Made by a program: the position numbers and the translations under genes. DNA of 64,000 nucleotides, taken from assembly GCF_018069625.1 (NCBI RefSeq), contig NZ_CP072941.1, positions 9,858,001-9,922,000 of the forward strand. The letters are read 5' to 3'. This stretch comes from Streptomyces yatensis (GTDB lineage: Bacteria > Actinomycetota > Actinomycetes > Streptomycetales > Streptomycetaceae). This document shows positions 3 through 15,349 of this stretch, piece after piece. Position 1 is the first letter of the stretch; each line of letters begins with the position of its first letter. The notes beneath the pieces are model-generated. The model saw only the letters and a list, made by a program, of their open reading frames with translations, ran no database searches and had not been told where the DNA came from.

Positions 3-926
3 GCGGGCCACCCCGACCTGATCGTCACCTTCGGCGGCGACGGCACCTTTCTGCGCGGCGCCCGGCTCGCGGCCGTGAACGGGGCCGCCGCGCTGGGGGT
101 GAACGTGGGGCGGGTCGGCTTCCTCACCGAGATCACGGTCGATCAGGTGGCGGACGCGCTGGACGCCGTCCACGACGGCCGTGCCACGATCGAGGAGCGG
201 ATGCTGCTCACCCTGCGGGCGTCCCGGCCGCTGGAGATGCCCGAGGGCATGGAGGCGCTGCTGCGGTACGGGCGGGGCCCCTTGCCGCCCCCGCCCAAGG
301 TCCGCCCCGGCCAGGGACCCGAGGAGGTCGGCTGGGGCATTCCGCTGGATGTCATCGCCGTCAACGACGTGGTCTTCGAAAAACTCGCCCGCGACCGGCA
401 GGCGGGGCTCGGCGTGTATGTGTCCGGGCAGTTGCTCGCCTCGTACTCGGCCGACGCGATCATCGTGGCCACCCCGACCGGCTCCACCGCGTACAGCTTC
501 GCCGCCGGCGGGCCGGTGGTCTCCCCGCATATGGACGCGGTGGTCTTCACCCCGGTCGCCCCGCACATCGCCTTCGACCGCACCGTGGTGGCCGCGGTGG
601 ACGAGGCCGTCGCCGTGCGGGTCCTGCCGACCTCGGGGCGGGTGGCGGTCAGCCTCGACGGGCAGTTGCGCGGCGTGCTGGATCCGGGCGACTGGGTGGC
701 CGCCTACCGGGCACCGAACCGGCTGCGGCTGGTGCGGCTCGCGCCGACGCGGTTCTACCACCGGCTGCGGGACCGCTTCCGGCTGGCCGACTCGCCCGCC
801 ACCGACGCGGCCCCGCCGTTCTACCACCCCCGCACCCCGGTCCCCCCGGACCTGGCGCATCTGCGGCTGGCCTTCGATCCCCTGCCCACGGAGCCCCTGC
901 CCCCGGAGGCGGAACACGGGGAGTGA
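3..926 (+). CDS. nadK: NAD kinase (5' end outside window)
   Basis: Phosphorylates NAD to NADP with ATP in the cytoplasm. The reading frame is already open at the window edge, so the N-terminus is missing. The ATP/Mg-binding GGDGT motif is encoded at 33-47, followed by the NVGRVGFLTE strand and the conserved NAD-binding ATPTGSTAYSFAAGGPVVSP segment. The central part carries a proline- and glycine-rich insert of about 25 residues (encoded near 262-340) that I do not expect in typical bacterial NAD kinases. There is also a long proline-rich tail after the last conserved strand. The stop overlaps a possible GTG at 923 of the next frame, but the downstream gene more likely starts at 971. Streptomyces often carry more than one NAD kinase, and this insert suggests a secondary paralogue (inference). 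Confidence 0.93.
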   Translation, partial: AGHPDLIVTFGGDGTFLRGARLAAVNGAAALGVNVGRVGFLTEITVDQVADALDAVHDGRATIEERMLLTLRASRPLEMPEGMEALLRYGRGPLPPPPKVRPGQGPEEVGWGIPLDVIAVNDVVFEKLARDRQAGLGVYVSGQLLASYSADAIIVATPTGSTAYSFAAGGPVVSPHMDAVVFTPVAPHIAFDRTVVAAVDEAVAVRVLPTSGRVAVSLDGQLRGVLDPGDWVAAYRAPNRLRLVRLAPTRFYHRLRDRFRLADSPATDAAPPFYHPRTPVPPDLAHLRLAFDPLPTEPLPPEAEHGE

Positions 927-970
927 CGCCGAAGATGCGGGGCGCCCACCCCGATGCCAGGCTGAGTGAT

Positions 971-1561
971 GTGACAGCTCACGCTTTTCACAGCGATCTC
1001 ACGCTGCGTGTCAACGGGGCTGACCGCCCCCTCACCCTCGACCACCGGGTGACCCTGCTGGACGCCCTGCGCGAACACCTGGCGCTGACCGGGGCCAAGA
1101 AGGGGTGCGACCACGGGCAGTGCGGGGCCTGCACCGTCCTGATCGACGGGGAGCGGGTCAACAGCTGCCTGGTGTTCGCCGTGGCCGCCCAGGGCCGCGA
1201 CATCACCACCATCGAGGGGGTGGCCGGGCTCGCCGCCACGGAAGAACTCCATCCGCTGCAGCGGGCGTTCCTGGAACACGACGGCTTCCAGTGCGGCTAT
1301 TGCACCCCGGGCCAGATCTGTTCCGCGATCGGCGCGCTCACCGAGGCCGGGCGCGGCTGGCCCAGCCATGTCACCGAGGACATGGCGGCCGGGGTCGGCG
1401 CGCCGGGCGACCTGGACGCCGACGAGATCCGGGAGCGGATGAGCGGCAACCTGTGCCGCTGCGGGGCCTACCCCGGCATCGTGGCCGCCATCCGCGAGGT
1501 CGCCGGGGCCGACGGCGGCGGGGCCCCGGCCCGCGCCGGTGCGGCGGGAGGGGCGCGATGA
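971..1561 (+). CDS. Aldehyde oxidoreductase, 2Fe-2S subunit (PaoA/XdhA-like)
   Basis: Electron-transfer subunit of a molybdenum hydroxylase of the xanthine dehydrogenase family. The N-terminal plant-ferredoxin cluster has Cys46, Cys51, Cys54 and Cys66 (CDHGQCGAC then NSC). The second 2Fe-2S domain has CGYC and CRC. The linker between them (PSHVTEDMAA...DEIRERMSGNLCRCGAY) resembles the PaoA/YagT branch rather than classical XdhA. GTG at 971 is chosen because the residues after it match family N-termini; a GTG at 923 overlapping the NAD kinase stop is the alternative. No Tat signal is visible, so the complex should be cytoplasmic, unlike E. coli PaoABC. The stop overlaps the next start in an ATGA junction, indicating translational coupling. 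Confidence 0.93.
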   Translation: MTAHAFHSDLTLRVNGADRPLTLDHRVTLLDALREHLALTGAKKGCDHGQCGACTVLIDGERVNSCLVFAVAAQGRDITTIEGVAGLAATEELHPLQRAFLEHDGFQCGYCTPGQICSAIGALTEAGRGWPSHVTEDMAAGVGAPGDLDADEIRERMSGNLCRCGAYPGIVAAIREVAGADGGGAPARAGAAGGAR

Positions 1562-2556
1562 AGCCGTTCGCCTACGAGCGCGCCACCGACCCCCAGGCCG
1601 CCGCCACGCTCGTGGCCGACTCCACCGAGACGGTGTATCTGGCCGGTGGCACCAACCTGGTGGACCTGATGAAGCTCGGGGTGACCGAGCCCGCCATGCT
1701 CGTCGACATCACCCAGCTCCCGTACGACACCATCGAGCACCGCCCCGACGGCGGTGTGCTCATCGGGGCGCTGGTCGGGGGCAGCCGGCTCGCCGGAGAC
1801 CCGGGCGTGCGCGAGCGCTTCCCCGCCCTGGCCGAAGCGCTGCTGTCCGGGGCCTCCGGGCAGCTGCGGACGGTGGCCACCACCGGCGGCAATCTGCTGC
1901 AGCGCACCCGCTGTGTGTACTTCCAGGACGTCACCAAACCCTGCAACAAGCGGCAGCCGGAAACCGGCTGTTCGGCCATCCAGGGCCTCCACCGCGACCT
2001 GGCCGTGCTCGGCACCTCCGACTTCTGCGTGGCGAGCCACCCCTCGGACATGGCGGTGGCGATGGCCGCGCTCGACGCGGTCGTCCATCTGCGGCGGGTG
2101 AACGGCAGCCCCCGCGCGGTGCCGCTGAACGAGTTCTATCTGCTGCCCGGTGACACACCGGACCGCGAGACGGTGCTGCAACCGGGTGATCTGATCACCG
2201 GTGTCGAGCTGCCACCGCCCCCCGAGGGCGCCGCCATGTCCTACCGCAAGGTCCGCGACCGCTGGTCCTACGCGTTCGCGGTGGTGTCGGTGGCCGCCGT
2301 GGCCGCCACGGACCCCGACGGCACACTGCGCGAGATCCGGCTGGGGCTCGGCGGCGTGGGCACCCGCCCCTGGCGGGCCCGCGAGGCCGAGCGGCTGCTC
2401 CTGGGCCGGCAGCCGACCGAGGAGACCCTGCGGGAGGCGGCACGGGCCGAGTTCGCCGCGGCGCGCCCGCTGCCGCAGAACGCATTCAAGATCGACCTCG
2501 CCGTGGATGTCATCACCTCGGCCGTGCGCGACCTCGTGGGAGGGCAGCGTCGATGA
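1558..2556 (+). CDS. Aldehyde oxidoreductase, FAD subunit with extra Fe-S loop (PaoB-like)
   Basis: FAD-binding middle subunit (332 residues) that passes electrons from the 2Fe-2S clusters to an acceptor. FAD-binding signatures AGGTNLVDLMK near residue 30 and TGGNLLQRTRC near 110 are present. Between them and the SHPSD motif lies an insert with Cys119, Cys129, Cys138 and Cys157. Such a loop carries an additional 4Fe-4S cluster in PaoB-type and 4-hydroxybenzoyl-CoA-reductase-type subunits and is absent from ordinary xanthine dehydrogenases. This assigns the enzyme to the PaoABC type (established family knowledge plus visible cysteines). It overlaps both neighbours by four bases, so all three subunits are probably made from one message. 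Confidence 0.92.
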   Translation: MKPFAYERATDPQAAATLVADSTETVYLAGGTNLVDLMKLGVTEPAMLVDITQLPYDTIEHRPDGGVLIGALVGGSRLAGDPGVRERFPALAEALLSGASGQLRTVATTGGNLLQRTRCVYFQDVTKPCNKRQPETGCSAIQGLHRDLAVLGTSDFCVASHPSDMAVAMAALDAVVHLRRVNGSPRAVPLNEFYLLPGDTPDRETVLQPGDLITGVELPPPPEGAAMSYRKVRDRWSYAFAVVSVAAVAATDPDGTLREIRLGLGGVGTRPWRAREAERLLLGRQPTEETLREAARAEFAAARPLPQNAFKIDLAVDVITSAVRDLVGGQRR

Positions 2557-4655
2557 CCACGCTCCAGCGGACCGTGGGCGCGGAGGTGACCCGTGTCGAA
2601 GGACGCGAGAAGGTCACCGGTACCGCGCTCTACGCCTATGAGTACCCGGTGCCGGACGCCCTGTACGCGTGGGCGGTGCAGTCCACCATCCCGCGCGGCA
2701 GGGTGCGCGCCGTCGACACCGGCGCGGCGCTGGCCCTGCCCGGCGTGGTCGCCGTGCTCGACAGCCACAATGTCTTCCGGCTGCGCCCTACCGACGCCCC
2801 CGAACTCGCCGTGCTGCAGTCCGCCGACGTCGCCTACCGGGGGCAGATCGTGGCGGCCGTGGTGGCGGACACCTTCGAGACGGCCCGTCAGGCCGCGGCG
2901 GCCCTGCGGATCGAGTACGACGTGGACGACCACGACGCCGAGCTGATGGACGGCGATCCACGCATCTTCGTCCCCGACACGGTCAACGGCGGCTACCCGG
3001 GCCAGACGGAGACCGGCGACGTGGCGGCCGCCCTCGCCGCGGCGCCGGTCGTCCTCGACGCCACGTACACCACGCCTGCGGAGCACACCAGCGCGATGGA
3101 ACCGCACGCCACCATCGCGGTCTGGGACGGGGACTCGCTCACCCTCTACAACGGCGACCAGGGCCCCTGGATGACGGCCGGCAGGGTGGCCGAGCTGTTC
3201 GGCCTGCCCGAGGGCGCCGTCCGGATCGTCGCCGACCACACCGGCGGCGGCTTCGGCTCCAAGGCGATTCCCCGCCCGCCCACGGTGCTCGCCGCGCTGG
3301 CCGCCCGCGCGGTGGGCCGCCCGGTCAAGGTGGCGGCCACCCGGCAGCAGATGTTCACCATGGTCTCGTACCGGACGCCCACCCTGCAGCGCATCCGGCT
3401 CGGCGCCGAACGGGACGGCCGGCTCACCGCCATCTGGCACGACGCGCTGCAGCAGAGCTCCACACTCAGCCCGTACTGCGAGCAGACCGTCACCCCCACC
3501 CGCGTCATGTACGCCGCGCGCCACCGCCGGACCACCCATCGCCTGGCGCAGCTGGATGTGCCGACACCCTCGTGGATGCGGGCCCCCGGCGAGGCGCCCG
3601 GGATGTTCGCGCTGGAGAGCGCGATGGACGAACTGGCCGTGGAACTGGGCATGGACCCCATCGACCTGCGGGTGGCCAACGAGCCGTCCGTGGAGCCGGA
3701 GAGCGGTCGCCCCTTCAGCAGCCGCAATCTGGTGGCGTGTCTGCGGGAGGGCGCGGCGCGCTTCGGCTGGGCGGGTCGCGACCCCGCGCCGGGGCGCCGC
3801 CGGGAGGGGCGCTGGCTGGTCGGCACCGGAGTCGCGGCGGGCAACTACCCCGCCCTCACCTGGCCCTCCACCGCGACGGCCCGAGCCGAGCCCGGCGGAG
3901 GTTTCACCGTACGGATCGCCGCGGCCGACATCGGCACCGGGGCCCGCACCGCGCTGACCCAGGTGGCGGCGGACGAACTCGGTGTGGAGATCGACCGGGT
4001 CGCCCTCGACATCGGCCGCAGCGCCTACGGCCAGGCACCGTGGGCGGGCGGCTCGATGGGCCTGAGCTCCTGGGGATGGGCGGTGTCCAAGGCGTGCCGG
4101 GCGCTGGCCAAGCGGCTCGACGAGGTCTCCGGCGCGATCCCGCCCGGCGGGCTGGAGGAGCGGGTGGACACCGCCGAGGACGTCGAGGCGCGCCGGGAGT
4201 TCTCCCGCCACGCCTACGGCGCCCAGTTCGCTGAGGTGCGGGTGGACGCCGTCACCGGCCAGGTGCGGGTCGACCGGCTGCTGGGGATGTTCGCCGCCGG
4301 GCGCATCATCAACCCCCGGACGGCGGGCTCGCAGCTGCGCGGCGCCATGTGCATGGGACTGTCGATGGCGCTGTACGAAAACCTGGAGACGGACCCGCGG
4401 TTCGGTGACTTCGCCAACCACGACCTCGCCACCTACCACATCGCCGCCCACGCCGATGTGCGGGACATCCAGGCGCACTGGATCGATGAACACGATGACG
4501 AGCTCAACCCGATGGGCAGCAAGGGCGTCGGGGAGCTGGGCATCGTCGGCACGGCGGCGGCTGTCGCCAACGCGGTCTACCACGCCACGGGGGTGCGGGT
4601 CCGCGATCTGCCGATCACGCTGGAGCGGGTGCGCGCGGGGCTGTCCGCCCACTGA
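2553..4655 (+). CDS. Aldehyde oxidoreductase, molybdenum-cofactor subunit (PaoC/XdhB-like)
   Basis: Catalytic large subunit (700 residues) binding molybdopterin-cytosine-dinucleotide-type cofactor and the aldehyde or heteroaromatic substrate. Family hallmarks are the N-terminal R(V)EGREKVTGTALYAYE segment, HTGGGFGSK in the cofactor-binding part, MRAPGEAPGMFALE, and the C-terminal KGVGELGIVGTAAAVANAV, where the glutamate of GxGELG is the expected catalytic base. The length is normal for this subunit type. No xdhC/mocA-like maturation gene follows, so insertion factors must be encoded elsewhere. Substrate cannot be read from sequence; aromatic aldehyde oxidation is the best guess from PaoABC homology. 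Confidence 0.92.
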   Translation: MTTLQRTVGAEVTRVEGREKVTGTALYAYEYPVPDALYAWAVQSTIPRGRVRAVDTGAALALPGVVAVLDSHNVFRLRPTDAPELAVLQSADVAYRGQIVAAVVADTFETARQAAAALRIEYDVDDHDAELMDGDPRIFVPDTVNGGYPGQTETGDVAAALAAAPVVLDATYTTPAEHTSAMEPHATIAVWDGDSLTLYNGDQGPWMTAGRVAELFGLPEGAVRIVADHTGGGFGSKAIPRPPTVLAALAARAVGRPVKVAATRQQMFTMVSYRTPTLQRIRLGAERDGRLTAIWHDALQQSSTLSPYCEQTVTPTRVMYAARHRRTTHRLAQLDVPTPSWMRAPGEAPGMFALESAMDELAVELGMDPIDLRVANEPSVEPESGRPFSSRNLVACLREGAARFGWAGRDPAPGRRREGRWLVGTGVAAGNYPALTWPSTATARAEPGGGFTVRIAAADIGTGARTALTQVAADELGVEIDRVALDIGRSAYGQAPWAGGSMGLSSWGWAVSKACRALAKRLDEVSGAIPPGGLEERVDTAEDVEARREFSRHAYGAQFAEVRVDAVTGQVRVDRLLGMFAAGRIINPRTAGSQLRGAMCMGLSMALYENLETDPRFGDFANHDLATYHIAAHADVRDIQAHWIDEHDDELNPMGSKGVGELGIVGTAAAVANAVYHATGVRVRDLPITLERVRAGLSAH

Positions 4656-6211: not shown

Positions 6212-7342
6212 TTACGCGGCGCCCCCACCGGTCCGGTGGGCCAGCTCCTGGCGGACCAGCGGCAGCAGCTCGCGGCCGTAGCCGACGGCGTCGTCCAGCG
6301 GGTCGTAACCACGGATCAGCAGGGTCGTGACGCCGATGTCCACATAGTCCAGCAGCGCCTTCGCGACCGTCTCCGGGGTGCCGACCAGCGCCGTGGAGTT
6401 CCCCGCGGCCCCGGTGGCGGCCGCGGTCGCCGTCCACAGCGCCCGGTCGTGGAGTTCACCCCGGGCGGCGGCGGCCAGCAGCCGCTGGGAGCCGACGTTC
6501 TGCGGGTCCGTGCCCCCGGTCGTGGGTGAGCCGAGCGCCTCACGGCCCCACCGGGAGGAGGTGAAGGAGCCCGCCGGGCCATGGGCCCTGATGGTGTCGA
6601 GGATCCGGTGCGCCCGCTCCCACGCCTGCTCCTCGGTCGCGCCGAGGATGGGCCGGAAGGACACGCTGATACCGGGTGGCTCGGTCCGGCCCGCGGCCTT
6701 GGCGGCCCGGTGCACGGAGGCGATCTGCTCCGCCGTCTCGGCCAGCGGTTCGCCCCACAGCGCGAAGGTGTCCGCGTGCCGGCCGCCCACGGCGTACGCC
6801 GCCTCGGAGGAACCACCGAAGTACAGCGGGATGCGTGGCCGCTGATGGGGGCGGACCTCGGCGTGGAAGTCCTCGAAGCGGTAGAAGCGGCCGTCGTGTC
6901 CGAACGGCTCCTCATCCGTCCACGCCCGCTTCAGGATCTCCAGATACTCATCCGTGCGGGCGTAACGGTCGTCCTTGCCCAGAAAGTCGCCGTCCCGCCG
7001 CTGCTCGGCGTCCCGCCCGCCGCTGATGATGTGCACGGCGACCCGCCCGCCGGAGAACTGGTCGAGGGTGGCGAACGTACGGGCGGCCAGGGTGGGGGCC
7101 ACGAAGCCGGGCCGATGGGCCACCAGCAGCCCGAGCCGTTCGGTGCGCGCGGCGACATACGCGGCCACCTGGGCGCCGTCGGGGGTGGCGGAGCCGTAGC
7201 CGATCAGCACCCGGTCGAAGCCCGCGTCCTCATGGGCGCGGGCGAACCGCAGGGTGTACTCGGCGTCCACGACGGGGCCGCGGGCCGGGTGGATCTCGGA
7301 CACCTCATGGGTGCCGATCATTCCGATGAACTCGACGGACAT
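6212..7342 (-). CDS. LLM-class FMN-dependent monooxygenase (SsuD-like)
   Basis: 376-residue flavin-dependent oxidoreductase of the bacterial luciferase/alkanesulfonate monooxygenase family, which uses FMNH2 and O2 to attack organic substrates, commonly releasing sulfite from C-S bonds. Family features are the N-terminal EFIGMIGTHEVSEIHP strand, HRPGFVAPTLAARTFATLDQFSGGRV and the NIISGG-like VHIISGGRDAEQ flavin site, then IPLYFGGSSEAAY and the C-terminal LLIRGYDPLDDA. ATG at 7342 follows a ggagaaagg ribosome site. It is the last gene of a minus-strand operon with a peptide-type ABC importer. A partner flavin reductase is not encoded here. Sulfonate or other organosulfur use is inferred from the family and from the upstream leader peptide. 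Confidence 0.9.
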   Translation of the reverse strand: MSVEFIGMIGTHEVSEIHPARGPVVDAEYTLRFARAHEDAGFDRVLIGYGSATPDGAQVAAYVAARTERLGLLVAHRPGFVAPTLAARTFATLDQFSGGRVAVHIISGGRDAEQRRDGDFLGKDDRYARTDEYLEILKRAWTDEEPFGHDGRFYRFEDFHAEVRPHQRPRIPLYFGGSSEAAYAVGGRHADTFALWGEPLAETAEQIASVHRAAKAAGRTEPPGISVSFRPILGATEEQAWERAHRILDTIRAHGPAGSFTSSRWGREALGSPTTGGTDPQNVGSQRLLAAAARGELHDRALWTATAAATGAAGNSTALVGTPETVAKALLDYVDIGVTTLLIRGYDPLDDAVGYGRELLPLVRQELAHRTGGGAA

Positions 7343-7385: not shown

Positions 7386-8438
7386 TCACCGCCCGGCTTC
7401 CTTGTCTGTTTCTCCGGCGGCCGCCACCAGCTCCGGCGGCCCTGGCGCGGTGGCCGGGGGAGTCGCCCCGGCCACCAGCTCACGCCACTGGGGCACCCGG
7501 TGGCAGGCGGCGGTGCGCCCCGGGCCCACCGGGGCCGGCGCGGGCGCGGTGCGGCAGGAGCCGGTGACGAACGGGCAGCGGTGGCCGAAGACACAGCCCT
7601 CCCGCGCCGTCCAGGAGGGCGGTTCGGCCGACGGGCGCAGCGCCGTCGCGCCCGGCCCGCCCCCGCCCCGTACGCTCGGCGCGGAGGCGATGAGCAGCGC
7701 GGTGTACGGATGCAGCGGCCGGCCGAACACCTCCCGTACGGGCCCCTGCTCCACCACCCGGCCGCGGTAGAGCACCGCCACCCGGTCGGCGATGCCCGCC
7801 AGCGAGCTGAGGTCGTGCGAGATGACGACGACGGCCATCCCGCGCTCGGTGCGCAGCCGGTCCAGCAGCCGCAGCACCCGGTTGCGGTTGGAGGCGTCCA
7901 GGGCGCTCACCGGCTCATCGGCGATCAGCAGCCGGGGCCGGATGACGATCGCCCGCGCGAGCAGCACCCGCTGGCGCTGACCGCCGGAGATCGCGCCGGG
8001 CAGCCGATCGCCGAGGCGTGCCGCGTCCAGGCCCACCGTCTCCAGCGCCCCGTCCACCTGTGCGGCGATCTCCGTGTCGCCGAGATCCCCCGCGACGGCG
8101 AGCGGTTCGGCCACCGCCCGGCGGACCGTCAGCTCCGGGTCCAGGGCCCGCAGCGGATCCTGGAACGCGTAACTCAGCCGCCCCGAACGGCGGAACGCCC
8201 GCAGCGCGCGCCCCCGCAGCCCGGAGATCTCGCGCCCGTCGAAGACCACCCGGCCCGAGCGCGGCGGGACCAGGCCCACGGCCGTACGGGCCAGCGTGGT
8301 CTTGCCGGAGCCGGTCTCCCCGATGACCCCGACGATCTCGCCCTCGGCCACGGACAGCTCCACACCGTCCAGCACCGGCCGCGCGTCCCGCCGGCCGAAG
8401 GCCACGGTCAGTCCGGAGATCTCCAGCAGCCCGCTCAT
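7386..8438 (-). CDS. Peptide-type ABC importer ATPase 2 (DppF-like)
   Basis: 350-residue ATPase that energises import through the inner-membrane permeases encoded upstream. Walker A is GETGSGKTTLA near residue 40, the signature is ISGGQRQRVLLARA, and Walker B is LLIADEPVSALD. A C-terminal oligopeptide-transporter extension contains the cysteine pattern CVFGHRCPF...C...C that in Dpp/Opp ATPases marks the OppF/DppF C-terminal domain. ATG at 8438 overlaps the stop of the partner ATPase in an ATGA junction. Confidence 0.92.
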   Translation of the reverse strand: MSGLLEISGLTVAFGRRDARPVLDGVELSVAEGEIVGVIGETGSGKTTLARTAVGLVPPRSGRVVFDGREISGLRGRALRAFRRSGRLSYAFQDPLRALDPELTVRRAVAEPLAVAGDLGDTEIAAQVDGALETVGLDAARLGDRLPGAISGGQRQRVLLARAIVIRPRLLIADEPVSALDASNRNRVLRLLDRLRTERGMAVVVISHDLSSLAGIADRVAVLYRGRVVEQGPVREVFGRPLHPYTALLIASAPSVRGGGGPGATALRPSAEPPSWTAREGCVFGHRCPFVTGSCRTAPAPAPVGPGRTAACHRVPQWRELVAGATPPATAPGPPELVAAAGETDKEAGR

Positions 8439-9511
8439 ACCGCCACCTCCCGGGTGCCGTGCGCACCGGCCCGCGACCGCTCGATCTCCTCGCCGCGCAC
8501 ACACCGCACCCGCCGCCCGTCGGTGGTCTCGCGCAGCGGCACCGGACCGCGGCGGCATTCGGGCGCGGCGAACGCGCAGCGGTCGGCGAACCGGCAGCCC
8601 GGCAGCCGCGCACCCACCTCGGGCGGTGCGCCGGGGATCACCTCAAGCTCGCGCCGCTCAAAGTCGCCGACCGTGGCCACGCGCAACAGCGCCTCGGTGT
8701 ACGGATGCAGGGGGTCGTTCAGCACCCGCTCGGCCGGGCCGTCCTCGACCAGCTCCCCGGCATACGCCACCAGGATCCGGTCGCACACCTCGGCGATCAC
8801 CGACAGATCGTGGCTGACCAGCAGCAGCGCCAGATCCCGCTCGGCGCGCATCCGGGCCAGCAACTCCAGGACCTCGGCCTGGACCACCACATCCAGCGCG
8901 GTGGTCGCCTCGTCGGCCACCAGCAGATCCGGGGCGCAGGCCACCGCGACGGCGATCAGCACACGCTGCAGCATCCCGCCGGACAGCTCGTGCGGATGGC
9001 GCCGGGCGACCTCGGCGGGGTCGTGCAACCCGACGGCGGCGAACAGCTCGACGGCCCGCTCAGCGGCCCGCGCGCGGTCCAGCCCCAGCTTCACCCGCAG
9101 CACCTCGGTCAGCTGACGCCCCACGGTCAGCGCGGGGTTGAGATACGAGGCGGGGTCCTGGAAGACGGCGCCCACCCGGGTGCCCCGTACGCGGTCCCAC
9201 TCCCGGCGCGACAGCCCGGTCAGCGCCTCACCGGACAGGGCGATCTCGCCCTCGGACACCGCGCAGCCGGGCGGCAGCAGTCCGAGCACCGACCGGCAGA
9301 TGAGGGTCTTGCCGCTGCCGGACTCGCCGACCAGGCCGACGGCCTCACCGCGGCCCACGGTGAACGACACATCGCGTACGGCCGTCAGCCGTCCGGACGC
9401 GACGGTGACGCCGAGTCCCTCGACCGCCAGCGCGGCGGGCCGTCGGCCCAGGGCGCCGGAGCCGTCGGGGCCGCCGGGCGTGGCGGGGTCAGGCGACGGG
9501 GAGTGCGGCAT
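8435..9511 (-). CDS. Peptide-type ABC importer ATPase 1 (DppD-like)
   Basis: 358-residue first ATPase of the importer. After a proline-rich N-terminus it shows Walker A GESGSGKT near residue 65, the signature LSGGMLQRVLIA and Walker B LLVADEATTALDVV. The C-terminal oligopeptide_HPY-type region GCRFADRCAFAAPEC is present. It overlaps the permease gene by 23 bases and the second ATPase by 4, so the five transporter genes form one tightly coupled unit. Confidence 0.92.
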   Translation of the reverse strand: MPHSPSPDPATPGGPDGSGALGRRPAALAVEGLGVTVASGRLTAVRDVSFTVGRGEAVGLVGESGSGKTLICRSVLGLLPPGCAVSEGEIALSGEALTGLSRREWDRVRGTRVGAVFQDPASYLNPALTVGRQLTEVLRVKLGLDRARAAERAVELFAAVGLHDPAEVARRHPHELSGGMLQRVLIAVAVACAPDLLVADEATTALDVVVQAEVLELLARMRAERDLALLLVSHDLSVIAEVCDRILVAYAGELVEDGPAERVLNDPLHPYTEALLRVATVGDFERRELEVIPGAPPEVGARLPGCRFADRCAFAAPECRRGPVPLRETTDGRRVRCVRGEEIERSRAGAHGTREVAV

Positions 9512-10412
9512 CGGCCTGCTCCTTGGTGGTGTCGGGGGTGTCGGGAGTGGCGCCCGGGGAGCCGGTGGCCGGATCCGGTGCGCCGCCGGGCAGCAACTCG
9601 TCCGCCCCGGCGTCCCGTACGGCATCGGCCAGCAGGTTGAGCGCACCGGCGGTGATGACGATCAGCGCGGCCGGGAACACCGGTGCCCAGATCTGCTGGG
9701 TGAGGAAGCCCAGATCGGTGGCGAGCATGCCGCCCCAGGTGGCGGCGGGAGGCTGCACACCGACCCCGAGGAAGGTCAGCGAGGAGACCACCAGCAGACA
9801 GGTGGCCAGCGCGTGGGCGGCGGTGACGATGACCGTCGGCAGGACCTTGCTCCAGATGTGGGTGCGCAGCACCCGCCCGACCGAGGCGCCGAACAGCTCG
9901 GCCGACTCCACGTACTGGGCGTGCCGCAGGCTCAGCGCGGCGGCGCGGGTCATCCGGAAGAACAGCGGGGCGTAGAGCACCCCGAGCGCCAGCATGGCCT
10001 GGTGCATCCCGTTGCCCAGCGCGCCCACCACCGCGATGGCGAACACGGTGAACGGCAGTGTCATCAGCGCGTCGACCGCACGCTGGGCGATCCACTCGCC
10101 CACCCGCCCCATCCACAGCGAGGCCAGTCCGGTCGGCACCCCCACCGCCATCGCGGCGGCCACCGCCTCCACGGCGCCCGCCACCGAGCGGCCACTGCCC
10201 TCCAGCAGCCGGCTGAGCACATCGCGGCCCAGATAGTCGGTGCCCAGAAGATGGCCGGGGCCGGGGCCGCGCAGCATGTTCCGGGGGTGCTGGGCCAGCG
10301 GGTCGTGCGGGGCGAGCCGGCCGCCGAACGCCGCCAGCAGCGCGATGGCCAGCAGCACCAGCAGCGCCACCTTGGCGGACGGATGTCCCCAGGCGCGTCG
10401 CAACGTCCTCAT
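9489..10412 (-). CDS. Peptide-type ABC importer permease 2 (DppC-like)
   Basis: 307-residue inner-membrane permease. The N-terminal membrane span (ALLVLLAIALLAAFGG) is followed by the family motif HDPLAQHPRNMLRGPGPGHLLGTDYLGRDVLSRLLEG, typical of DppC/OppC. Further spans follow, with the EAA-type coupling loop (ESAELFGASVGRVLRTHIWSK). ATG at 10412 overlaps the stop of the upstream permease by four bases. Confidence 0.92.
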   Translation of the reverse strand: MRTLRRAWGHPSAKVALLVLLAIALLAAFGGRLAPHDPLAQHPRNMLRGPGPGHLLGTDYLGRDVLSRLLEGSGRSVAGAVEAVAAAMAVGVPTGLASLWMGRVGEWIAQRAVDALMTLPFTVFAIAVVGALGNGMHQAMLALGVLYAPLFFRMTRAAALSLRHAQYVESAELFGASVGRVLRTHIWSKVLPTVIVTAAHALATCLLVVSSLTFLGVGVQPPAATWGGMLATDLGFLTQQIWAPVFPAALIVITAGALNLLADAVRDAGADELLPGGAPDPATGSPGATPDTPDTTKEQADAALPVA

Positions 10413-11428
10413 CGGCGCGTCACCTCCCGGCGCCGGGCGGCCGGATTCAGCGCGAGCAGCGCCGCGTTGACGGCCACGTTGACGACCAGGACCACCGCGA
10501 TGGTCACCAGCAGCGTCCCCTGGATCACCGGGATGTCGTGCTGCTCCGCCGACTGCAGGGTGAGCTGGGCGAGACCGGGCAGCGCGAAGATCTGCTGGGT
10601 GACCACCGCACCGCCGAGCAGCATCGGCACGCTCATCCCGAGCGCGGTGAGCGCCGGTCCGGCGGCGTTGCGCAGGGCATGGCCGAACACCACCCGCCGG
10701 GCGGGCAGCCCGCGCATCACCGCGCCCGTCACGTAGTTCTCCCGCAACGTCCCCACCAGCGAGGTGCGCAGCTGACGGGCGATGGCGGCAGCGGCCTCCA
10801 GGCTCAGCGCCAGCGCGGGCATCACGGTGTACCGCAGCCACTGCGCGGGGTCCATGTCCAGCGGCACATAGCCACCGGACGGCAGCCACCCCAGCTTCAG
10901 CGAGAACACCGTGACCAGCGCGATGGCCACGACGAAACCGGGCAGGGTGCCGAGCAGCGCGCACAGCGCGGTGACGGTGCGGTCCAGCCGTCCGCCGGCC
11001 CGGAGCGCGGCGGCGACACCGGCGGCCCCGCCCAGCACCACGGCCATCAGCAGCGCGAGCCCGGCGATGGACAGATCCACCGGCATCGCCTGCCGGATGC
11101 TGTCGGCCACCGGGACCGTGGTGAACCACGAGCGCCCCAGGTCCCCGGTGAAGGCGTGCCCCAGCCACGACACGTACTGCTCCCACAGCGGCCGGTCGAG
11201 GCCGAACCGCTGGTTCATCCGGGCGATGTCGGCGGGCGTCGCCGTCTCGCCGAGCACCGCCGCCGCCGGATTGGCCCCGGAGAGCGCGCCGAGACCGAAG
11301 GTGAGCACGGAGGACAGCAGGAACACCGTGCCCGCCGTGGCGAGGAGGCGGCCGAGCGAGCGCGGGAGACGGGCGGCCCGTACGGGCTTGCGCCGTGTGC
11401 GCGCGAGGTGCGGAGCGAGCGCGGTCAT
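10409..11428 (-). CDS. Peptide-type ABC importer permease 1 (DppB-like)
   Basis: 339-residue permease with six predicted membrane segments. It has the DppB-type N-terminal span near residues 25-50, a periplasmic region with NPAAAVLGETATPADIARMNQRFGLDRPLWEQYVSWL, and the GAVMRGLPARRVVFGHALRN coupling loop. It pairs with the downstream DppC-like protein. Its start overlaps the stop of the substrate-binding protein gene in an ATGA junction. Confidence 0.92.
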   Translation of the reverse strand: MTALAPHLARTRRKPVRAARLPRSLGRLLATAGTVFLLSSVLTFGLGALSGANPAAAVLGETATPADIARMNQRFGLDRPLWEQYVSWLGHAFTGDLGRSWFTTVPVADSIRQAMPVDLSIAGLALLMAVVLGGAAGVAAALRAGGRLDRTVTALCALLGTLPGFVVAIALVTVFSLKLGWLPSGGYVPLDMDPAQWLRYTVMPALALSLEAAAAIARQLRTSLVGTLRENYVTGAVMRGLPARRVVFGHALRNAAGPALTALGMSVPMLLGGAVVTQQIFALPGLAQLTLQSAEQHDIPVIQGTLLVTIAVVLVVNVAVNAALLALNPAARRREVTRR

Positions 11429-13002
11429 CCGGCCGCCACCCCCTCGAACCGCTGCACCACCGGGAGCGAGGGGATGGCGGAGACGGAGGACGTACGGGCC
11501 AGCGCGCGCGGCACCGTGTAGAGGAACACATTCGGCATCGTGCGCACCGCCACCGCGGTGGCCGCCCGCAGCACCTGCGGATAGCGCGGCGACTCCAGCG
11601 GGGTGCGGCGCACCGCGGCCACGGCCGCGTCCAGTTCGGGCGTCGTACGGCGGGAGGGGTTCATCAGCCCCTCCGCGCCGAAGAGCACCTGCATCGCCTG
11701 CACCGGCGACTCCCGCCCGGCGAACTGGTCGAGGTACAGCGCACGGGAGTGCTGGACGTACACCACCTGGGACGCCCGCGCCTCCGGGATGACCTCGATC
11801 CGGGCCCGGAACCCGGCCCGGTTCAGCTGCGCCTGCAACTGCTCGGGCGCGCCCTGCGGCTGGGCGGTGGTGATGGTCACCTCGACGCCGTCGTGGTATC
11901 CGGCCTCCCGCAGCAGTGCGCGCGCCCGCTCCGGGTCATGCCGGTACACCGCGCCGAGCGCCGGGTCGAAGCCCGTATAGCCGGGCGGGAAGGGCTGGTG
12001 GTCCACCTCGCCATGGCCGAACTGTTCGCTGTCCAGCAGGGCCTGGCGGTCCACGGCGTACTTCAGGGCCTCGAGGACGGCGGGGTCGTCGAAGGGCTTC
12101 ATGGCGGTGTTCACATCCAGGACGCGCACCACCATCGAGGGGATGAGCTGCACCGTGAAACCGGCCTCGCGTGCCGCCTCGACCTGGCTGAACGGGATCT
12201 GGGCCACATTGAGCCGCCCCGACTGGAGCGCGGCGAGCGCCGTGGTCTCATCGGGCTTCGGATACGCCTCGAAGCGCTCGACCGCGATGTGTTCGGCGTT
12301 CCAGTAGCCGGGGTCGCGGCGCAGGCTCGCCATCGAGTTCTGGGTGTAGGACACCAGCCGGAACGGGCCGTGGCCGACCGGCCTGGTGGCCAGCCGCGCC
12401 TCGTCCTTCCCGAACGCGGTGGGGCTGACCACCATGCCGGTCTTCCCGGCCAGCAGTGCGGGCAACTGGTAGTCGGCCTCGGTGAGTTCGAGGACCACGG
12501 TGTGCGGGTCGGGGGCCCGTACCGTGTCGATGCTGGTCAGCTGGGAGGCGATCAGGGACTTGGGGTGGTTCTTGCCGCGCTCGAGACTCTTCTTGACGGC
12601 CTCGGCGTTCACCGGGGTGCCGTCGGCGAACCCCAGGCCACGGCGGAGGGCGAAGGTGAGGCGGCGCCCGTCGTGGGAGTAGCGCCAGGAGGAGGCGAGC
12701 GCGGGCCGGGCGCCGCCCTTGGCGTCGAGTTGGGTCAGCCCGGAGTAGACGAGCGACAGCAGATGGACATCCCAGCCCTTGGAGGAGAACACCGGGTCCC
12801 AGGTGGAGGGCAGGTCCCAGCCCCAGCGCAGGGTCTCGCCCCCGCCACCCGCCCCGGTCGTCGCCACCCCGCCACAGGCGGACAGCAGCAGGGAGCCGCC
12901 CGCCCCCAGCGCGAGCCCGAGCACGGAGCGCCGGTCAGGGGCGGGGCGCGGTGGCGGATCGGGCGAACGGCGGACGGGACGCGGCGGGGCGGCGGAGGTC
13001 AT
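11425..13002 (-). CDS. ABC importer substrate-binding lipoprotein (SBP_bac_5/DppA-like)
   Basis: 525-residue extracellular binding protein of the peptide/nickel family (cluster C). The N-terminus has RRSVLGLALGAGGSLLLSACGG, giving a twin-arginine-like stretch plus a lipobox cysteine, so it is likely a lipoprotein. The body has the family pattern TLRWGWDLPSTWDPVFSSKGWDVHLLSLVYSGLTQLD and the conserved Y..R.PEL-type C-terminal lobe. Related proteins carry peptides, opines, glutathione or sulfur compounds. First gene of the transporter; the upstream 390 bases hold a leader peptide of the sulfur type, which points to a sulfur-containing ligand (inference). Confidence 0.9.
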   Translation of the reverse strand: MTSAAPPRPVRRSPDPPPRPAPDRRSVLGLALGAGGSLLLSACGGVATTGAGGGGETLRWGWDLPSTWDPVFSSKGWDVHLLSLVYSGLTQLDAKGGARPALASSWRYSHDGRRLTFALRRGLGFADGTPVNAEAVKKSLERGKNHPKSLIASQLTSIDTVRAPDPHTVVLELTEADYQLPALLAGKTGMVVSPTAFGKDEARLATRPVGHGPFRLVSYTQNSMASLRRDPGYWNAEHIAVERFEAYPKPDETTALAALQSGRLNVAQIPFSQVEAAREAGFTVQLIPSMVVRVLDVNTAMKPFDDPAVLEALKYAVDRQALLDSEQFGHGEVDHQPFPPGYTGFDPALGAVYRHDPERARALLREAGYHDGVEVTITTAQPQGAPEQLQAQLNRAGFRARIEVIPEARASQVVYVQHSRALYLDQFAGRESPVQAMQVLFGAEGLMNPSRRTTPELDAAVAAVRRTPLESPRYPQVLRAATAVAVRTMPNVFLYTVPRALARTSSVSAIPSLPVVQRFEGVAAG

Positions 13003-13232
13003 GACGGGACGTCGCCTTTCGTGGTGTCAACTGCCCCCGGACGGCCATGAGCACACGGCCGCACACGTCCGCGCACGACAGCGAGGACACGCGGACGGGC
13101 AGCGGTCATGAAGGCCGGAGGCGGTGGGGCCCGGGGAGGAAAGCGAGGGGAACGAGCGGCACGAGGCGCTCGGGACGTGGCAGATCGCGGCGGCGGACCG
13201 CGTCGGCGGATTCCGTCAGCGAAGGAGGGCGA

Positions 13233-13307
13233 TCAGCGACAGATGGCGCTGGCGGTGCGCCGGAAGTCCACGTATCGGCACACCACACCGGGGTGCGTCG
13301 TCAGCAT
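13233..13307 (-). CDS. Leader peptide, actinobacterial sulfur-operon type (24 aa)
   Basis: A 24-codon frame starting ATG at 13307 and ending TGA at 13233. Its second half reads RYVDFRRTASAICR-stop. This matches the pattern R-x-H-V-D-L-x-R-x-x-S-A-x-C-R shared by small leader peptides found upstream of sulfonate and cysteine-related operons in Streptomyces. Cysteines are at positions 10 and 23. The predicted promoter puts the transcription start at or one base from the ATG, so the message would be leaderless. It lies 230 bases upstream of the importer operon, consistent with attenuation by ribosome stalling at cysteine codons. Family match is from memory; regulation is inference. Confidence 0.72.
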   Translation of the reverse strand: MLTTHPGVVCRYVDFRRTASAICR

Positions 13308-13343
13308 GTGCCCATGGTGCGGGGCGAGGACCGGCGAAGTCAA
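13308..13343 (-). promoter_or_regulatory. Promoter of the leader peptide / importer operon
   Basis: On the minus strand, -35 TTGACT (13343-13338) and -10 CACCAT (13319-13314) are 18 bases apart, and the leader ATG lies six bases after the -10 element. A leaderless transcript is expected. The -10 element is weak. Confidence 0.5.
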
Positions 13344-13345
13344 TG

Positions 13346-13361
13346 GACACCTTTAGGTGTC
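13346..13361. promoter_or_regulatory. Perfect 16-bp palindrome, candidate operator
   Basis: gacacct-tt-aggtgtc, with perfect seven-base arms, sits two bases upstream of the -35 element of the leader promoter. Position and symmetry fit a dimeric activator or repressor site. The Rrf2 protein encoded 1 kb upstream or a distant regulator could bind it (inference). Confidence 0.5.
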
Positions 13362-13394
13362 TCATCGGGTAAGACGGCTACCACCTGGGACTTT

Positions 13395-14330
13395 TCAGCC
13401 CTGACGGGCGGTGAGCACCGGATGGGCGGCGGCCTCGTCCGGATGCAGCCACAGCGGCCCGCCCGCCGTCTCCACCCGTACGGCCGCGGGTGGCGGAGTG
13501 GTCCGGCCCGTCAGCAGCGACAGGTCGGGCCCGGTCAGGCTGCGGTGCTCCGCCAGGGCCTCCTCGGGACCGATGAGGGCCGCCTGCCAGAGATGACCGG
13601 GGGCCACCGTGCGCAGCGCCGCCGTGTACTCGGCCACGCTCCGCCACCCCGGGGCGGCCACGCGCCCGCCGGGGCCGGAGAACACCAGTGTGGGCAGCGC
13701 GTAGCGCACCCCGTCGTCGGTTTCCTTGACGCCCGTGCCATGCGGCCCCGGGGCGCGGAAGGCATACGCCTCCGGGATCGGGTCGCGGGCCTCGGCGTGG
13801 TCCTGCCGGACGGCCGCCACCACCGACGGCTCGCCCATCTGCGCGCCCAGCCGCCCCACATCGACACCGTCGAGCCCCGCCAGGGCGTCGAGCACCCGCT
13901 CCGCCGTATCGGCCGGAGTACCCAGTACGAACGTGGTCTCGCGCAGCCGCCGCAGCACCCGCTCCGCGGCGATCGCGCCCTGCCGCTCGGCCGCCTTCGC
14001 GGCGAGCGAGGCCGGCCGGCTGGTGGCCGCCACCCAGCGCAGCCGATGAGCGTAGGGCGCCCGCGTATGGCGGGCGATATCGGCGATATAGCGGCTGTAC
14101 CAGGCGGTCTCGGCCGCGGGATCCGGTGCCGGATCGTCGCCGTCGTCGAAGAGGATGCCGAACACCCGGCGCCAGCGGGCCCGCCCCGCGGTCAGCGCCC
14201 GCAGGTGGCGGAACGCGGGCTCGGAGCCCCACGCCCACGGGCAGGCCGGATCGGTGTACTCCACGATCTCGACGTCCCCGCCGCCGTCCGCCCCGGTGCT
14301 CCCGGGCCGGTCCGGGCTCGCGGGCGTCAT
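13395..14330 (-). CDS. DsbA-family thioredoxin-fold protein (FrnE-like)
   Basis: 311-residue cytoplasmic protein with a thioredoxin-fold start, VEIVEYTDPACPWAWGSEPAFRHLRAL, near residue 20. The usual CxxC of disulfide oxidoreductases is replaced by a single cysteine followed by PWAW. This is common in the FrnE/DsbA-like proteins of actinobacteria, so classical thiol oxidation cannot be assumed. The helical insert and the C-terminal GVKETDDGVRYALPTLVFSG cis-proline-type strand are present. It overlaps the Rrf2 gene by four bases (ATGA) and is therefore co-expressed with it. A role in thiol or mycothiol chemistry is suggested by the regulator context but not shown. Confidence 0.8.
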   Translation of the reverse strand: MTPASPDRPGSTGADGGGDVEIVEYTDPACPWAWGSEPAFRHLRALTAGRARWRRVFGILFDDGDDPAPDPAAETAWYSRYIADIARHTRAPYAHRLRWVAATSRPASLAAKAAERQGAIAAERVLRRLRETTFVLGTPADTAERVLDALAGLDGVDVGRLGAQMGEPSVVAAVRQDHAEARDPIPEAYAFRAPGPHGTGVKETDDGVRYALPTLVFSGPGGRVAAPGWRSVAEYTAALRTVAPGHLWQAALIGPEEALAEHRSLTGPDLSLLTGRTTPPPAAVRVETAGGPLWLHPDEAAAHPVLTARQG

Positions 14331-14737
14331 GCCGCCAGCCGCTCGCGGACCAGATCGCTCAGGGCGGTGGAGGTCAGCACCTGGCGCACATGGTCCTCCA
14401 GCCCACGCCACACCCCGGGCAGTCCGGCCGCCGGGCCGGGGTAGCCGAGGTCGTCCAGCCGCTCGCCGCGCAGCGTCAGAAACGCCCCGTCCACGGCGAG
14501 CACGATGTCCGCGAGGGTCATCTCGGCGGGGTCGCGGGCCAGCCAGTAGCCACCCTCGCAGCCACGCTGACTGCGCACCAGGCCGGCCTGGCGCAGATCC
14601 CGGAAGACCCCCTTGAGGAACCGGAAGGGGATGTCCTGGGAGGTGGCTATCGCCTCACAGGTGAGTGGCCTGCCCGCGTCCGCGGCCAGCTCCGCCAGCG
14701 CCCGGACCGCGTAGTCCGCCTTCGCCGAGATCTGCAT
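14327..14737 (-). CDS. Rrf2-family transcriptional regulator
   Basis: 136-residue winged-helix regulator with the canonical Rrf2 start MQISAKADYAVRALAELA and the SQRGCEGGYWLARDPAEMTLADIV wing. Cysteines occur only at residues 27 and 60. The three-cysteine cluster near residues 90-105 that binds Fe-S in IscR and NsrR is absent, so it is closer in this respect to CymR, the cysteine-metabolism repressor. ATG at 14737 is preferred over an upstream in-frame ATG at 14764 because the predicted -10 element places transcription start at the former. Divergent from the cupin gene and coupled to the DsbA-like gene. Confidence 0.9.
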   Translation of the reverse strand: MQISAKADYAVRALAELAADAGRPLTCEAIATSQDIPFRFLKGVFRDLRQAGLVRSQRGCEGGYWLARDPAEMTLADIVLAVDGAFLTLRGERLDDLGYPGPAAGLPGVWRGLEDHVRQVLTSTALSDLVRERLAA

Positions 14738-14833: not shown

Positions 14834-15349
14834 ATGACGACGCCCGGCGGCGACCCCGCGCAGCAGCACGACGCGTTCCATCCGCATCTGAGGGATCTGA
14901 AGGCCACCGCCCCCGACAGTCCGCTGCGGATGCGGCTGCACCACATCCGCACCGAGGACGTCGACCCCGGCACCGCCCAGACCGAGGGCATGCGGCGGTT
15001 CGCCGCGATCAGCGGTCAGTCGGTGGGGTCCGAGCGGCTCTGGATGGGCCAGACGCATGTGGCGCCGGACACCGCCTCCGCCAATCACCACCACGGCGAG
15101 TCCGAGACGGCCATCTTCGTGGTGCGGGGCCACCCCGAGTTCGTCTTCGCGGAGGAGCGGGACGGACGTGTCGAGGAGGTCCGGCTGCGCACCCGCCCGG
15201 GTGACTACATCTTCGTCCCGCCGTTTGTGCCGCACCGGGAGGAGAACCCGGACCCCGACGACGAGGCGGTGGTGGTCATCGCCCGCAGCACTCAGGAGGC
15301 CATCGTGGTCAACCTGCCGGAGCTGTATGTGCTGGAGCCGGGGGAGTAG
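14834..15349 (+). CDS. Cupin-domain protein
   Basis: 171-residue single-domain cupin. The metal-binding motif 1 is NHHHGESETAIFVVRGHPEFVF and motif 2 is RPGDYIFVPPFVPHREENPD, giving the usual His/Glu/His metal set. The fold serves enzymes and small-molecule binders alike, so the reaction is unknown. ATG at 14834 is set by the promoter geometry, which predicts a leaderless message. Divergent from the Rrf2 regulator and thus possibly under its control through the shared 97-base intergenic region (inference). Confidence 0.82.
   Translation: MTTPGGDPAQQHDAFHPHLRDLKATAPDSPLRMRLHHIRTEDVDPGTAQTEGMRRFAAISGQSVGSERLWMGQTHVAPDTASANHHHGESETAIFVVRGHPEFVFAEERDGRVEEVRLRTRPGDYIFVPPFVPHREENPDPDDEAVVVIARSTQEAIVVNLPELYVLEPGE

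What the first reader, a model, noticed from the sequence alone, without database searches (positions are those of the whole stretch)
13233..13343. Sulfur-type leader peptide controls a peptide-type importer and flavin monooxygenase operon
A 24-codon frame ending RYVDFRRTASAICR-stop fits the leader-peptide pattern found before sulfonate and cysteine genes in Streptomyces. It has its own -35/-10 pair placing transcription start at the ATG. Here it precedes a Dpp-type importer, not the usual Ssu system, so it predicts that this unannotatable importer serves sulfur nutrition.
Basis: partly seen in the sequence, partly recalled or inferred. Interest (0 to 1): 0.72.

Follow-up and report, generated by a model that had tools for sequence, protein, structure and literature searches.

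The report
Cysteine-sensing leader guards organosulfur import operon
A 24-codon mini-gene in a Streptomyces genome looks like a cysteine sensor that, together with a neighbouring regulator gene and its DNA switch, decides when the cell makes a peptide-type importer and an oxygenase for scavenging sulfur from organic compounds; it belongs to a known kind of leader but forms a distinct version with a second layer of control.

Summary
The leader is real: MLTTHPGVVCRYVDFRRTASAICR* (13307-13233, minus). It matches NCBIfam NF042934 'putative leader peptide', below cut-off, and its frame is under selection (pN/pS 0.35; 1.95 and 1.22 in shifted frames). Of 246 Streptomyces genomes 30 have it, including all 28 with this binding protein. 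Promoter spacing, kept in 94 of 94 distinct upstreams, puts the start at the leader ATG. Operon relatives carry SsuE and an NtaA/DmoA oxygenase, and most other leaders examined in this genome precede sulfur genes.

The terminal Cys codon is nearly always the rare UGU. The spacer is C-rich without U-runs, favouring Rho-type attenuation; masking of the ribosome site is not a general rule.

Best reading: Rrf2 controls initiation, the cysteine-reading leader controls elongation. No expression data. Known kind, new variant.

The parts
13233..13307 (-). leader peptide ORF, 24 codons, MLTTHPGVVCRYVDFRRTASAICR; Cys10 = TGC, Cys23 = TGT
13346..13363 (.). operator GAGACACC-TAAA-GGTGTC (core palindrome 13346-13361), abutting the -35 box
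13338..13343 (-). -35 hexamer TTGACT
13314..13319 (-). -10 hexamer CACCAT, 6 nt before the leader ATG (leaderless start inferred)
13003..13232 (-). 230-nt C-rich spacer without U-tract between leader stop and first operon gene (candidate Rho loading region; inferred)
11425..13002 (-). family-5 solute-binding lipoprotein (Dpp/Opp/Nik type), SD GAAAGG at 13020-13015
10409..11428 (-). DppB/NikB-type permease
9489..10412 (-). DppC/NikC-type permease
8435..9646 (-). DppD-type ATPase (longest frame; true start probably near 9511, inferred)
7386..8438 (-). DppF-type ATPase
6212..7342 (-). luciferase-like flavin monooxygenase, nearest SsuD/SfnG models but below their cut-offs
14327..14737 (-). CymR-like Rrf2 regulator without a C-terminal Fe-S cysteine cluster; candidate reader of the operator
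13395..14330 (-). DsbA/Thioredoxin_5-like protein with a CPWAW motif, between Rrf2 and operator
14834..15349 (+). divergent cupin gene conserved beside Rrf2
   Evidence: Cupin_2 hit on the L086 homologue

Best explanation
A two-step sulfur control region. Step 1: the CymR-like Rrf2 protein encoded at 14327-14737 binds the palindrome 13346-13363, which abuts the -35 box, and probably represses the promoter when sulfur or cysteine is plentiful (inferred from co-occurrence, adjacency and position). Step 2: transcription starts at the leader ATG (inferred from conserved spacing) and the leaderless mRNA is translated at once (translation supported by selection on the frame). With enough Cys-tRNA the ribosome finishes the 24 codons, the C-rich spacer is exposed, and transcription ends early, probably by Rho. 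When cysteine is short the ribosome halts at the wobble-read UGU two codons before the stop, keeps the start of the spacer covered, and polymerase continues into the importer and monooxygenase genes (inferred). The product is a Dpp-type importer plus a flavin monooxygenase that together scavenge an organosulfur compound; its identity is unknown.
For: Leader: NF042934 hit; in-frame pN/pS 0.35; 30 of 246 genomes have it at E up to 1e-4, including all 28 with the binding protein at E up to 1e-60. Promoter: 94 of 94 distinct upstreams. Operator: 31 sites in 28 of 246 genomes with at most 1 mismatch, 0 in the reversed control; 29 of 31 leader-found loci differ from the 22 fixed bases of operator plus -35 by at most 1. 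Regulator: Rrf2 orthologues at 160 bits or more (my cut; next best 141.7) in 31 of 246 genomes, being all 30 leader genomes plus G232, where the operator-to-reductase block appears deleted. Sulfur role: in relatives SsuE above cut-off (224.5 vs 164.05), NtaA/DmoA above cut-off (490.9 vs 279.7), and an SfnB-like dehydrogenase below cut-off (107 vs 430.9) behind the paralogous leader; other leaders in the genome precede sulfur genes. Cysteine sensing: terminal Cys codon TGT in 70 of 70 distinct leaders vs 98 of 797 (12.3%) background Cys codons, in 148 of 150 printed Streptomyces matches and 91 of 93 printed from other genera (hand counts). Rho: C minus G at least 10 points in 47 of 48 spacers vs 27 of 170 control intergenic regions, no TTTTT in any spacer. 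Separable layers: another Rrf2 clade goes with a different operator at nearly the same place before the same kind of promoter, with a leader in 16 of 30 checked loci.
Against: No transcript, ribosome or expression data. Rrf2 binding is inferred only. C-richness is weaker outside Streptomyces (at least 10 points in 13 of 26) and does not prove Rho loading. Only two cysteines in 24 codons, against the Cys runs described for mycobacterial leaders. The monooxygenase is below the SsuD and SfnG cut-offs, and no reductase was called in the window's own operon. Six leaders end in TGC in the broader checks: 3 of 16 of the second Rrf2 regulon and 3 of 26 from other genera.
Confidence: 0.68

Rival explanations
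1. Translational attenuation: the end of the leader mRNA base-pairs with the ribosome site of the binding-protein gene, and a ribosome stalled at UGU frees it.
For: Mycobacterial cysteine genes are said to be regulated by translation attenuation (passage in PMC13236596). The ribosome site is the best-matching window in L061 and L197 and, counted by hand, within the best tenth of windows in 22 of 48 loci, the window's own (behind 22 of 235) included.
Against: It is the single best window in only 2 of 48 loci and in many ranks in the middle; the 22 of 48 is inflated because the best of about 15 overlapping windows was taken for the ribosome site against single windows elsewhere.
Confidence: 0.15
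2. Nascent-chain arrest: the leader peptide itself, not only its Cys codons, stalls the ribosome in response to a sulfur metabolite, as TnaC does for tryptophan.
For: Eight residues after Met1 (V8, C10, R11, V13, D14, R17, T18, S20) plus C23 are invariant in 70 distinct leaders while synonymous sites vary at R11, D14, R17 and T18; pN/pS 0.35; 24 codons followed by a C-rich spacer without U-tract resembles tnaC (recalled).
Against: A Cys-codon attenuator with extra codon or nucleotide constraint would also look conserved: AGC20, TGT23 and the TGA stop are invariant as DNA and CGC24 nearly so (67 of 70).
Confidence: 0.2
3. The importer serves something other than sulfur (peptides, metal chelates), and the leader is inherited decoration.
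For: The binding protein and permeases score best against glutathione and nickel models, all below cut-off; the substrate cannot be named.
Against: The leader is present in all 28 sampled genomes with the binding protein and the neighbours in relatives include SsuE and NtaA/DmoA enzymes.
Confidence: 0.08
4. Classical attenuator with an intrinsic terminator.
For: Other Streptomyces leaders (trpL1, ilvL) are described that way (PMC8079986 passages).
Against: No terminator-like site in window 12900-13500; no TTTTT in 48 spacers, TTTT in 5; no clear conserved structure by eye in an alignment of 36 spacers.
Confidence: 0.04
5. The frame is a chance ORF and only the operator matters.
For: In the second Rrf2 regulon 14 of 30 checked operator sites lack an intact leader by my rule, and L175 here has a frameshifted leader.
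Against: Frame, start position and peptide are kept across the genus with in-frame selection.
Confidence: 0.02

Closest known systems
NCBIfam NF042934 (cis_reg_atten, 'putative leader peptide')
   Same: C-terminal half matches profile positions 7-19 of 19; same D-(L/F)-x-R-x-x-SA-x-C type of end, same UGU, same C-rich follow-on in Streptomyces
   Different: 19.2 bits, below the cut-off of 27; CRYVD core in place of RRHVDL; tied to one operator and, in the sample, to this operon type and a few oxygenase loci
Cysteine-responsive leaderless short ORFs of mycobacteria (Canestrari et al. 2020; paper not held, known here through passages in PMC9031893, PMC13236596 and PMC9094748)
   Same: leaderless start (here inferred), Cys codons near the stop, sulfur or cysteine operon downstream
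   Different: single terminal UGU rather than a Cys run; leader-to-ribosome-site pairing not a general rule; added Rrf2 operator
CymR (Rrf2 family, cysteine regulator)
   Same: Rrf2 superfamily; CymR is the next-best NCBIfam model (67.9 bits, IscR 65.7), and CymR structure 2y75 is matched at 3.1e-13
   Different: below the CymR cut-off of 195; best structure hit is another BadM/Rrf2 protein (4cic); no test of a partner protein
SsuEADCB / sfn organosulfur systems
   Same: flavin monooxygenase; relatives carry an SsuE-type reductase and an SfnB-like dehydrogenase
   Different: peptide-type (Dpp) importer instead of SsuABC
TIGR04027 oxygenase with TIGR04028 binding protein (Klebsiella KPN_01858/KPN_01854 set; pairing inferred from the numbers in the model names)
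   Same: the L088 relative carries an oxygenase at 291.3 bits to TIGR04027 beside a peptide-type importer; the window's binding protein hits TIGR04028 at 47.9 bits
   Different: both below cut-off (412.9 and 468.5)

Membership tests
NF042934 leader | score at or above curated cut-off (27 bits) | tested here: not met
   19.2 bits; so filed as a relative or sub-type, not a member by the curated rule
NF042934 leader | short translated ORF upstream of sulfur/cysteine genes in actinobacteria | tested here: met
Cysteine-responsive leaderless attenuator | start codon at the transcript 5' end | tested here: inconclusive
   promoter spacing predicts it in 94 of 94 distinct upstreams; no transcript data
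Cysteine-responsive leaderless attenuator | Cys codon next to the leader stop | tested here: met
   Cys23 of 24, TGT in 70 of 70
Cysteine-responsive leaderless attenuator | expression responds to cysteine supply | not testable with these tools
   needs reporter or RNA-seq
Translational (ribosome-site-masking) attenuator | leader end pairs best with the ribosome site | tested here: not met
   best window in 2 of 48 loci; best tenth in 22 of 48, a figure inflated by the way it was taken
Intrinsic-terminator attenuator | hairpin plus U-tract between leader and gene | tested here: not met
Rho-dependent attenuator | C-rich, G-poor untranslated stretch after the leader | tested here: met
   47 of 48 spacers vs 27 of 170 controls
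Rho-dependent attenuator | termination lost on Rho inhibition | not testable with these tools
   bench test needed
CymR | NCBIfam CymR cut-off (195 bits) | tested here: not met
   67.9 bits; filed only as Rrf2 superfamily (101.6 vs cut-off 73.3)
CymR | no C-terminal Fe-S cysteine cluster | tested here: met
   cysteines only at 27 and 60 of the 136-residue window protein
Ssu sulfonate system | SsuABC-type importer and SsuD above cut-off | tested here: not met
   family-5 binding protein; SsuD model 212.5 vs cut-off 518.2

The most novel reading that the evidence does not exclude
Streptomyces controls organosulfur scavenging by a recurrent two-layer module: a sulfur-sensing Rrf2 repressor with a clade-specific operator next to the -35 box, and just downstream a leaderless leader whose nearly invariant, wobble-read terminal UGU (with a conserved nascent peptide) sets a sensitive cysteine threshold for Rho-dependent termination. 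Two Rrf2 clades with two different operators share the same promoter-plus-leader chassis, and the UGU rule extends to other genera of the actinobacterial class.
Probability: 0.4. Interest if true: 0.68.

Novelty: new variant of a known kind. Interest (0 to 1): 0.52.

Why it matters
It gives a likely function (organosulfur nutrition) to a peptide-type importer and oxygenases that family models leave unnamed, and it names the regulator, operator, start site and sensing codon to test. The near-invariant UGU codon, against a background in which UGC makes up about 88% of Cys codons (699 of 797), makes a direct experiment possible: change UGU to UGC and see whether the cysteine threshold moves. If it does, decoding speed rather than the amino acid alone sets the sensor.

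Tried and rejected
Pairing between the leader end and the ribosome site was the favoured idea for a while, because several loci show CUCUGU opposite ACAGAG; the scan of all windows did not bear it out as a general rule (best window in 2 of 48; best tenth in 22 of 48, inflated by taking the best of about 15 windows). Conserved RNA structure in the spacer: a MAFFT alignment of 36 spacers showed by eye only a short block after the stop and otherwise fast divergence; no covariation test was run. Rfam found nothing above threshold in 12900-13500; the one weak match (xerDC, 21.3 bits vs 72.5) lies at 13368-13492, mostly in the DsbA-like gene. The core palindrome alone, with one mismatch allowed, is no more frequent in the genome than its reversed control (43 vs 41 per strand), so only the palindrome joined to the -35 box is specific. 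The pattern ACACCTNNAGGTGT found just the one window site. Paper searches: names for this leader type gave 0 papers; Streptomyces leader with sulfite reductase and cysteine synthase gave 0; UGU or cysteine-codon leaders gave 16, of which the 10 listed showed none on this codon rule by title and abstract start. The open library lacks most subscription papers, so 'not in print' is not claimed.

Row counts and drops: gene maps come from a simple gene finder of my own, which missed the Rrf2 gene in L091 and L100 that one search places there. The 31 leader-found loci are 31 of the 36 matches printed. One search used 107 loci (31 leader-found plus 76 operator-found, partly the same species), 72 distinct leader DNAs, 70 with 24 codons (two longer ones dropped). 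One search gave a usable binding-protein start in 48 of 91 distinct loci, the rest dropped. Of 96 stretches matched in named genomes 80 were returned; 76 had an intact leader by my rule; of the other four, L154 is cut by the end of the fetched stretch, L175 has a frameshifted leader, L186 and L209 have altered Cys leaders. Operator conservation in those 80 is by construction; the independent figure is the 31 leader-found loci. Of the 15 NF042934 matches in the own genome the 10 best were examined, five weak ones not. One search's 33 distinct leaders include the window's and its paralogue. Counts were made by hand from the printed rows (150 of 155 matches printed; further matches, all those of one family among them, were not printed).

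Full report
WHAT IS THERE. On the minus strand, 13307 to 13233 reads MLTTHPGVVCRYVDFRRTASAICR-stop. It lies 230 nt before a tightly packed operon: family-5 binding protein (13002-11425), two permeases, two ATPases and a luciferase-like monooxygenase ending at 6212. The genome is a 10.36-Mb single contig. A scan of named genomes for operator plus -35 matched 96 stretches; the 80 returned are almost all Streptomyces, with a few Kitasatospora and Actinacidiphila and two records named only as actinobacteria.

IS IT MORE THAN CHANCE. NCBIfam's leader model NF042934 hits the peptide at 19.2 bits, below its cut-off of 27. In 246 Streptomyces genomes the peptide is found in 30 at E up to 1e-4 and the binding protein in 28 at E up to 1e-60; the 28 all lie within the 30. 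From the printed coordinates the intact leader sits within about 0.6 kb upstream and in the same direction in 25 of the 28. In G010 it is 12 kb away; in G028 the two are on different small contigs; in G096 the binding-protein match is split and only a partial leader match lies beside it. Where the binding proteins fall to 37-40% identity the leaders stay at 83-88%. Over 70 distinct 24-codon leaders pN/pS is 0.35 in frame against 1.95 and 1.22 in the shifted frames, which is the mark of a translated peptide.

PROMOTER AND OPERATOR. In 94 of 94 distinct upstreams TTGACN is followed after 17 or 18 nt by (C/G)A(G/C/A)(G/C/T)AT and 6 or 7 nt later by the leader ATG; shuffling predicts 1.45. This places the start point at the ATG, so the leader would be leaderless; this is inferred. 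Abutting the -35 box is GAGACACC-N4-GGTGTCCA. Among the 31 loci found by the peptide, 20 match the 22 fixed bases of operator plus -35 exactly, 9 differ by one, 1 by two and 1 by three. Scanned at one mismatch, the core joined to TTGAC occurs 31 times in 28 of 246 genomes, each time at a leader by the printed coordinates, and never in the reversed control. Without the -35 part the palindrome is not enriched in the own genome.

REGULATOR. Between the operator and a divergent cupin gene lie a DsbA-like gene and an Rrf2-family gene (14327-14737). The full order cupin | Rrf2, DsbA-like, leader, binding protein was called in 23 of the 34 stretches mapped, the window included; the others are cut, rearranged, paralogous leader loci or missed calls. 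Rrf2 orthologues of at least 160 bits occur in 31 of 246 genomes: all 30 leader genomes plus G232; the next best score is 141.7. In G232 the cupin and Rrf2 remain, and the DsbA-like start runs straight into what looks like the end of the FMN reductase, so operator, leader and operon appear to have been deleted as a block. The protein's next-best NCBIfam models after the Rrf2 superfamily are CymR (67.9 bits) and IscR (65.7), both below cut-off; it matches the CymR structure 2y75 at 3.1e-13, behind 4cic, 7zpn and 3lwf; and it has cysteines only at 27 and 60, so it lacks the C-terminal Fe-S cysteines of many Rrf2 proteins (that feature from a passage of PMC5015018). In Rhodococcus a CymR/Rrf2 protein was detected only in dibenzothiophene cultures (PMC8557817, passages). 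That this Rrf2 protein reads the operator is an inference.

SULFUR ROLE. In 21 to 23 of the 34 mapped stretches the operon region continues with an NtaA/DmoA-type monooxygenase, an alpha/beta hydrolase and an SsuE-type FMN reductase; the L086 representatives of the monooxygenase and reductase score 490.9 (cut-off 279.7) and 224.5 (cut-off 164.05). Some add an FAD monooxygenase (7 stretches) or a TIGR04027-like oxygenase family (16 stretches, other contexts included). The window's own operon has the SsuD/SfnG-like oxygenase instead and no reductase was called in it. The second copy of leader and operator in this genome (L026; G000:C1:306951-307019) precedes another luciferase-like oxygenase, and in G055 and G165 it precedes an SfnB-like dehydrogenase (107 bits, cut-off 430.9), hydrolase, flavin reductase and oxygenase. 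The other examined leaders of this genome precede a CysM-type cysteine synthase, a sulfite/nitrite-reductase-like protein with PAPS reductase, an SsuC-like permease, a sulfurtransferase-like protein, SfnG and a dicarboxylate-type symporter. One weak candidate (L023) lacks the terminal Cys and gave no NCBIfam hit for its next gene, nor did the first gene behind L019. The window's oxygenase stays below the SsuD and SfnG cut-offs, so the substrate is open.

THE UGU RULE. Cys23 is TGT in 70 of 70 distinct leaders, Cys10 is TGC in 70 of 70, and background genes use TGT for 98 of 797 Cys codons (12.3%). For leaders found by a pattern that leaves the codon open, TGT ends 148 of 150 printed Streptomyces matches and 91 of 93 printed matches from other genera; of leaders read in full, 33 of 33 distinct ones end in TGT. 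Against the rule, 3 of 16 leaders of the second Rrf2 regulon and 3 of 26 from other genera in a broader match end in TGC. The likely reason is that UGU is read by wobble and so is a more sensitive probe of charged Cys-tRNA; this is inference. Other synonymous sites are also fixed (AGC20 in 70 of 70, CGC24 in 67 of 70), so a nucleotide-level signal is not excluded.

HOW ELONGATION IS PROBABLY CONTROLLED. The 48 spacers measured average 47.3% C and 28.8% G; C minus G is at least 10 points in 47 of 48, against 27 of 170 other intergenic regions from the same loci; no spacer has TTTTT, and no intrinsic terminator is predicted in window 12900-13500. Generic Streptomyces leaders are followed by equally C-rich sequence (35 of 35), those of other genera less so (13 of 26). 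This favours Rho-dependent termination, which a 2005 comparison raised, as a weak prediction by its own words, for mycobacterial cys leaders that also lack terminators (PMC1262725, passages). Masking of the ribosome site by the leader end was tested and is not a general rule. Passages of later papers describe the mycobacterial cysteine leaders as attenuators, one of them as translation attenuation; the original paper is not held.

A RECURRENT DESIGN. A different Rrf2 clade (47-49% identical in these three) lies near leaders in three loci inspected (L312-L314), with another palindrome, TTTCCTAT-N8-TAGGRAA, three bases before the -35 box. That element with TTGAC occurs in 51 of 246 genomes at up to one mismatch, 0 in the control. 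Of 30 such loci checked, 16 have a leader at 31-32 nt and 14 do not by my rule. So the operator and the leader are separable layers, and the leader can be lost.

VERDICT. The locus is a new sub-type of a known leader kind with an added Rrf2 layer. What is shown: sequence, selection on the frame, conserved promoter and operator, gene linkage. What is inferred: start site, Rrf2 binding, cysteine response, Rho, substrate class.

Noticed in passing
L280 (G232:C1:1212000-1231000), around 7485-8777: Cupin and Rrf2 genes remain while the DsbA-like start is joined to what looks like the end of the FMN reductase: an apparent clean deletion of operator, leader and operon.
   Followed up: yes
L312, L313, L314 and L315-L344: A second Rrf2 clade with its own palindrome TTTCCTAT-N8-TAGGRAA before a leader promoter, or without an intact leader; 51 of 246 genomes.
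   Followed up: partly
L026 (G000:C1:306951-307019): Second copy of the same operator, promoter and leader in this genome, before another luciferase-like oxygenase.
   Followed up: partly
window 13395-14330 and its homologues: DsbA-like protein beside Rrf2 has a CPWAW (once CPWSW) motif instead of a CxxC in 25 of 26 called homologues (L109 is the miss). It may be an adaptor rather than a disulfide enzyme.
   Followed up: no
L175 (Streptomyces sp. NRRL S-37): Leader with intact operator but the conserved end out of frame: a natural leader mutant.
   Followed up: no
L078 / G070:C56:215478-215540: Inverted partial copy of the leader in the spacer next to a run of N, probably an assembly artefact.
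   Followed up: no
G000:C1:8755797-8756189: Rrf2 paralogue (56% identical) about 12 kb from the leader of the SsuC-like operon.
   Followed up: partly
window 923-4655: Three genes resembling a xanthine dehydrogenase/aldehyde oxidase type enzyme (assigned by eye, not searched), on the opposite strand to the operon.
   Followed up: no
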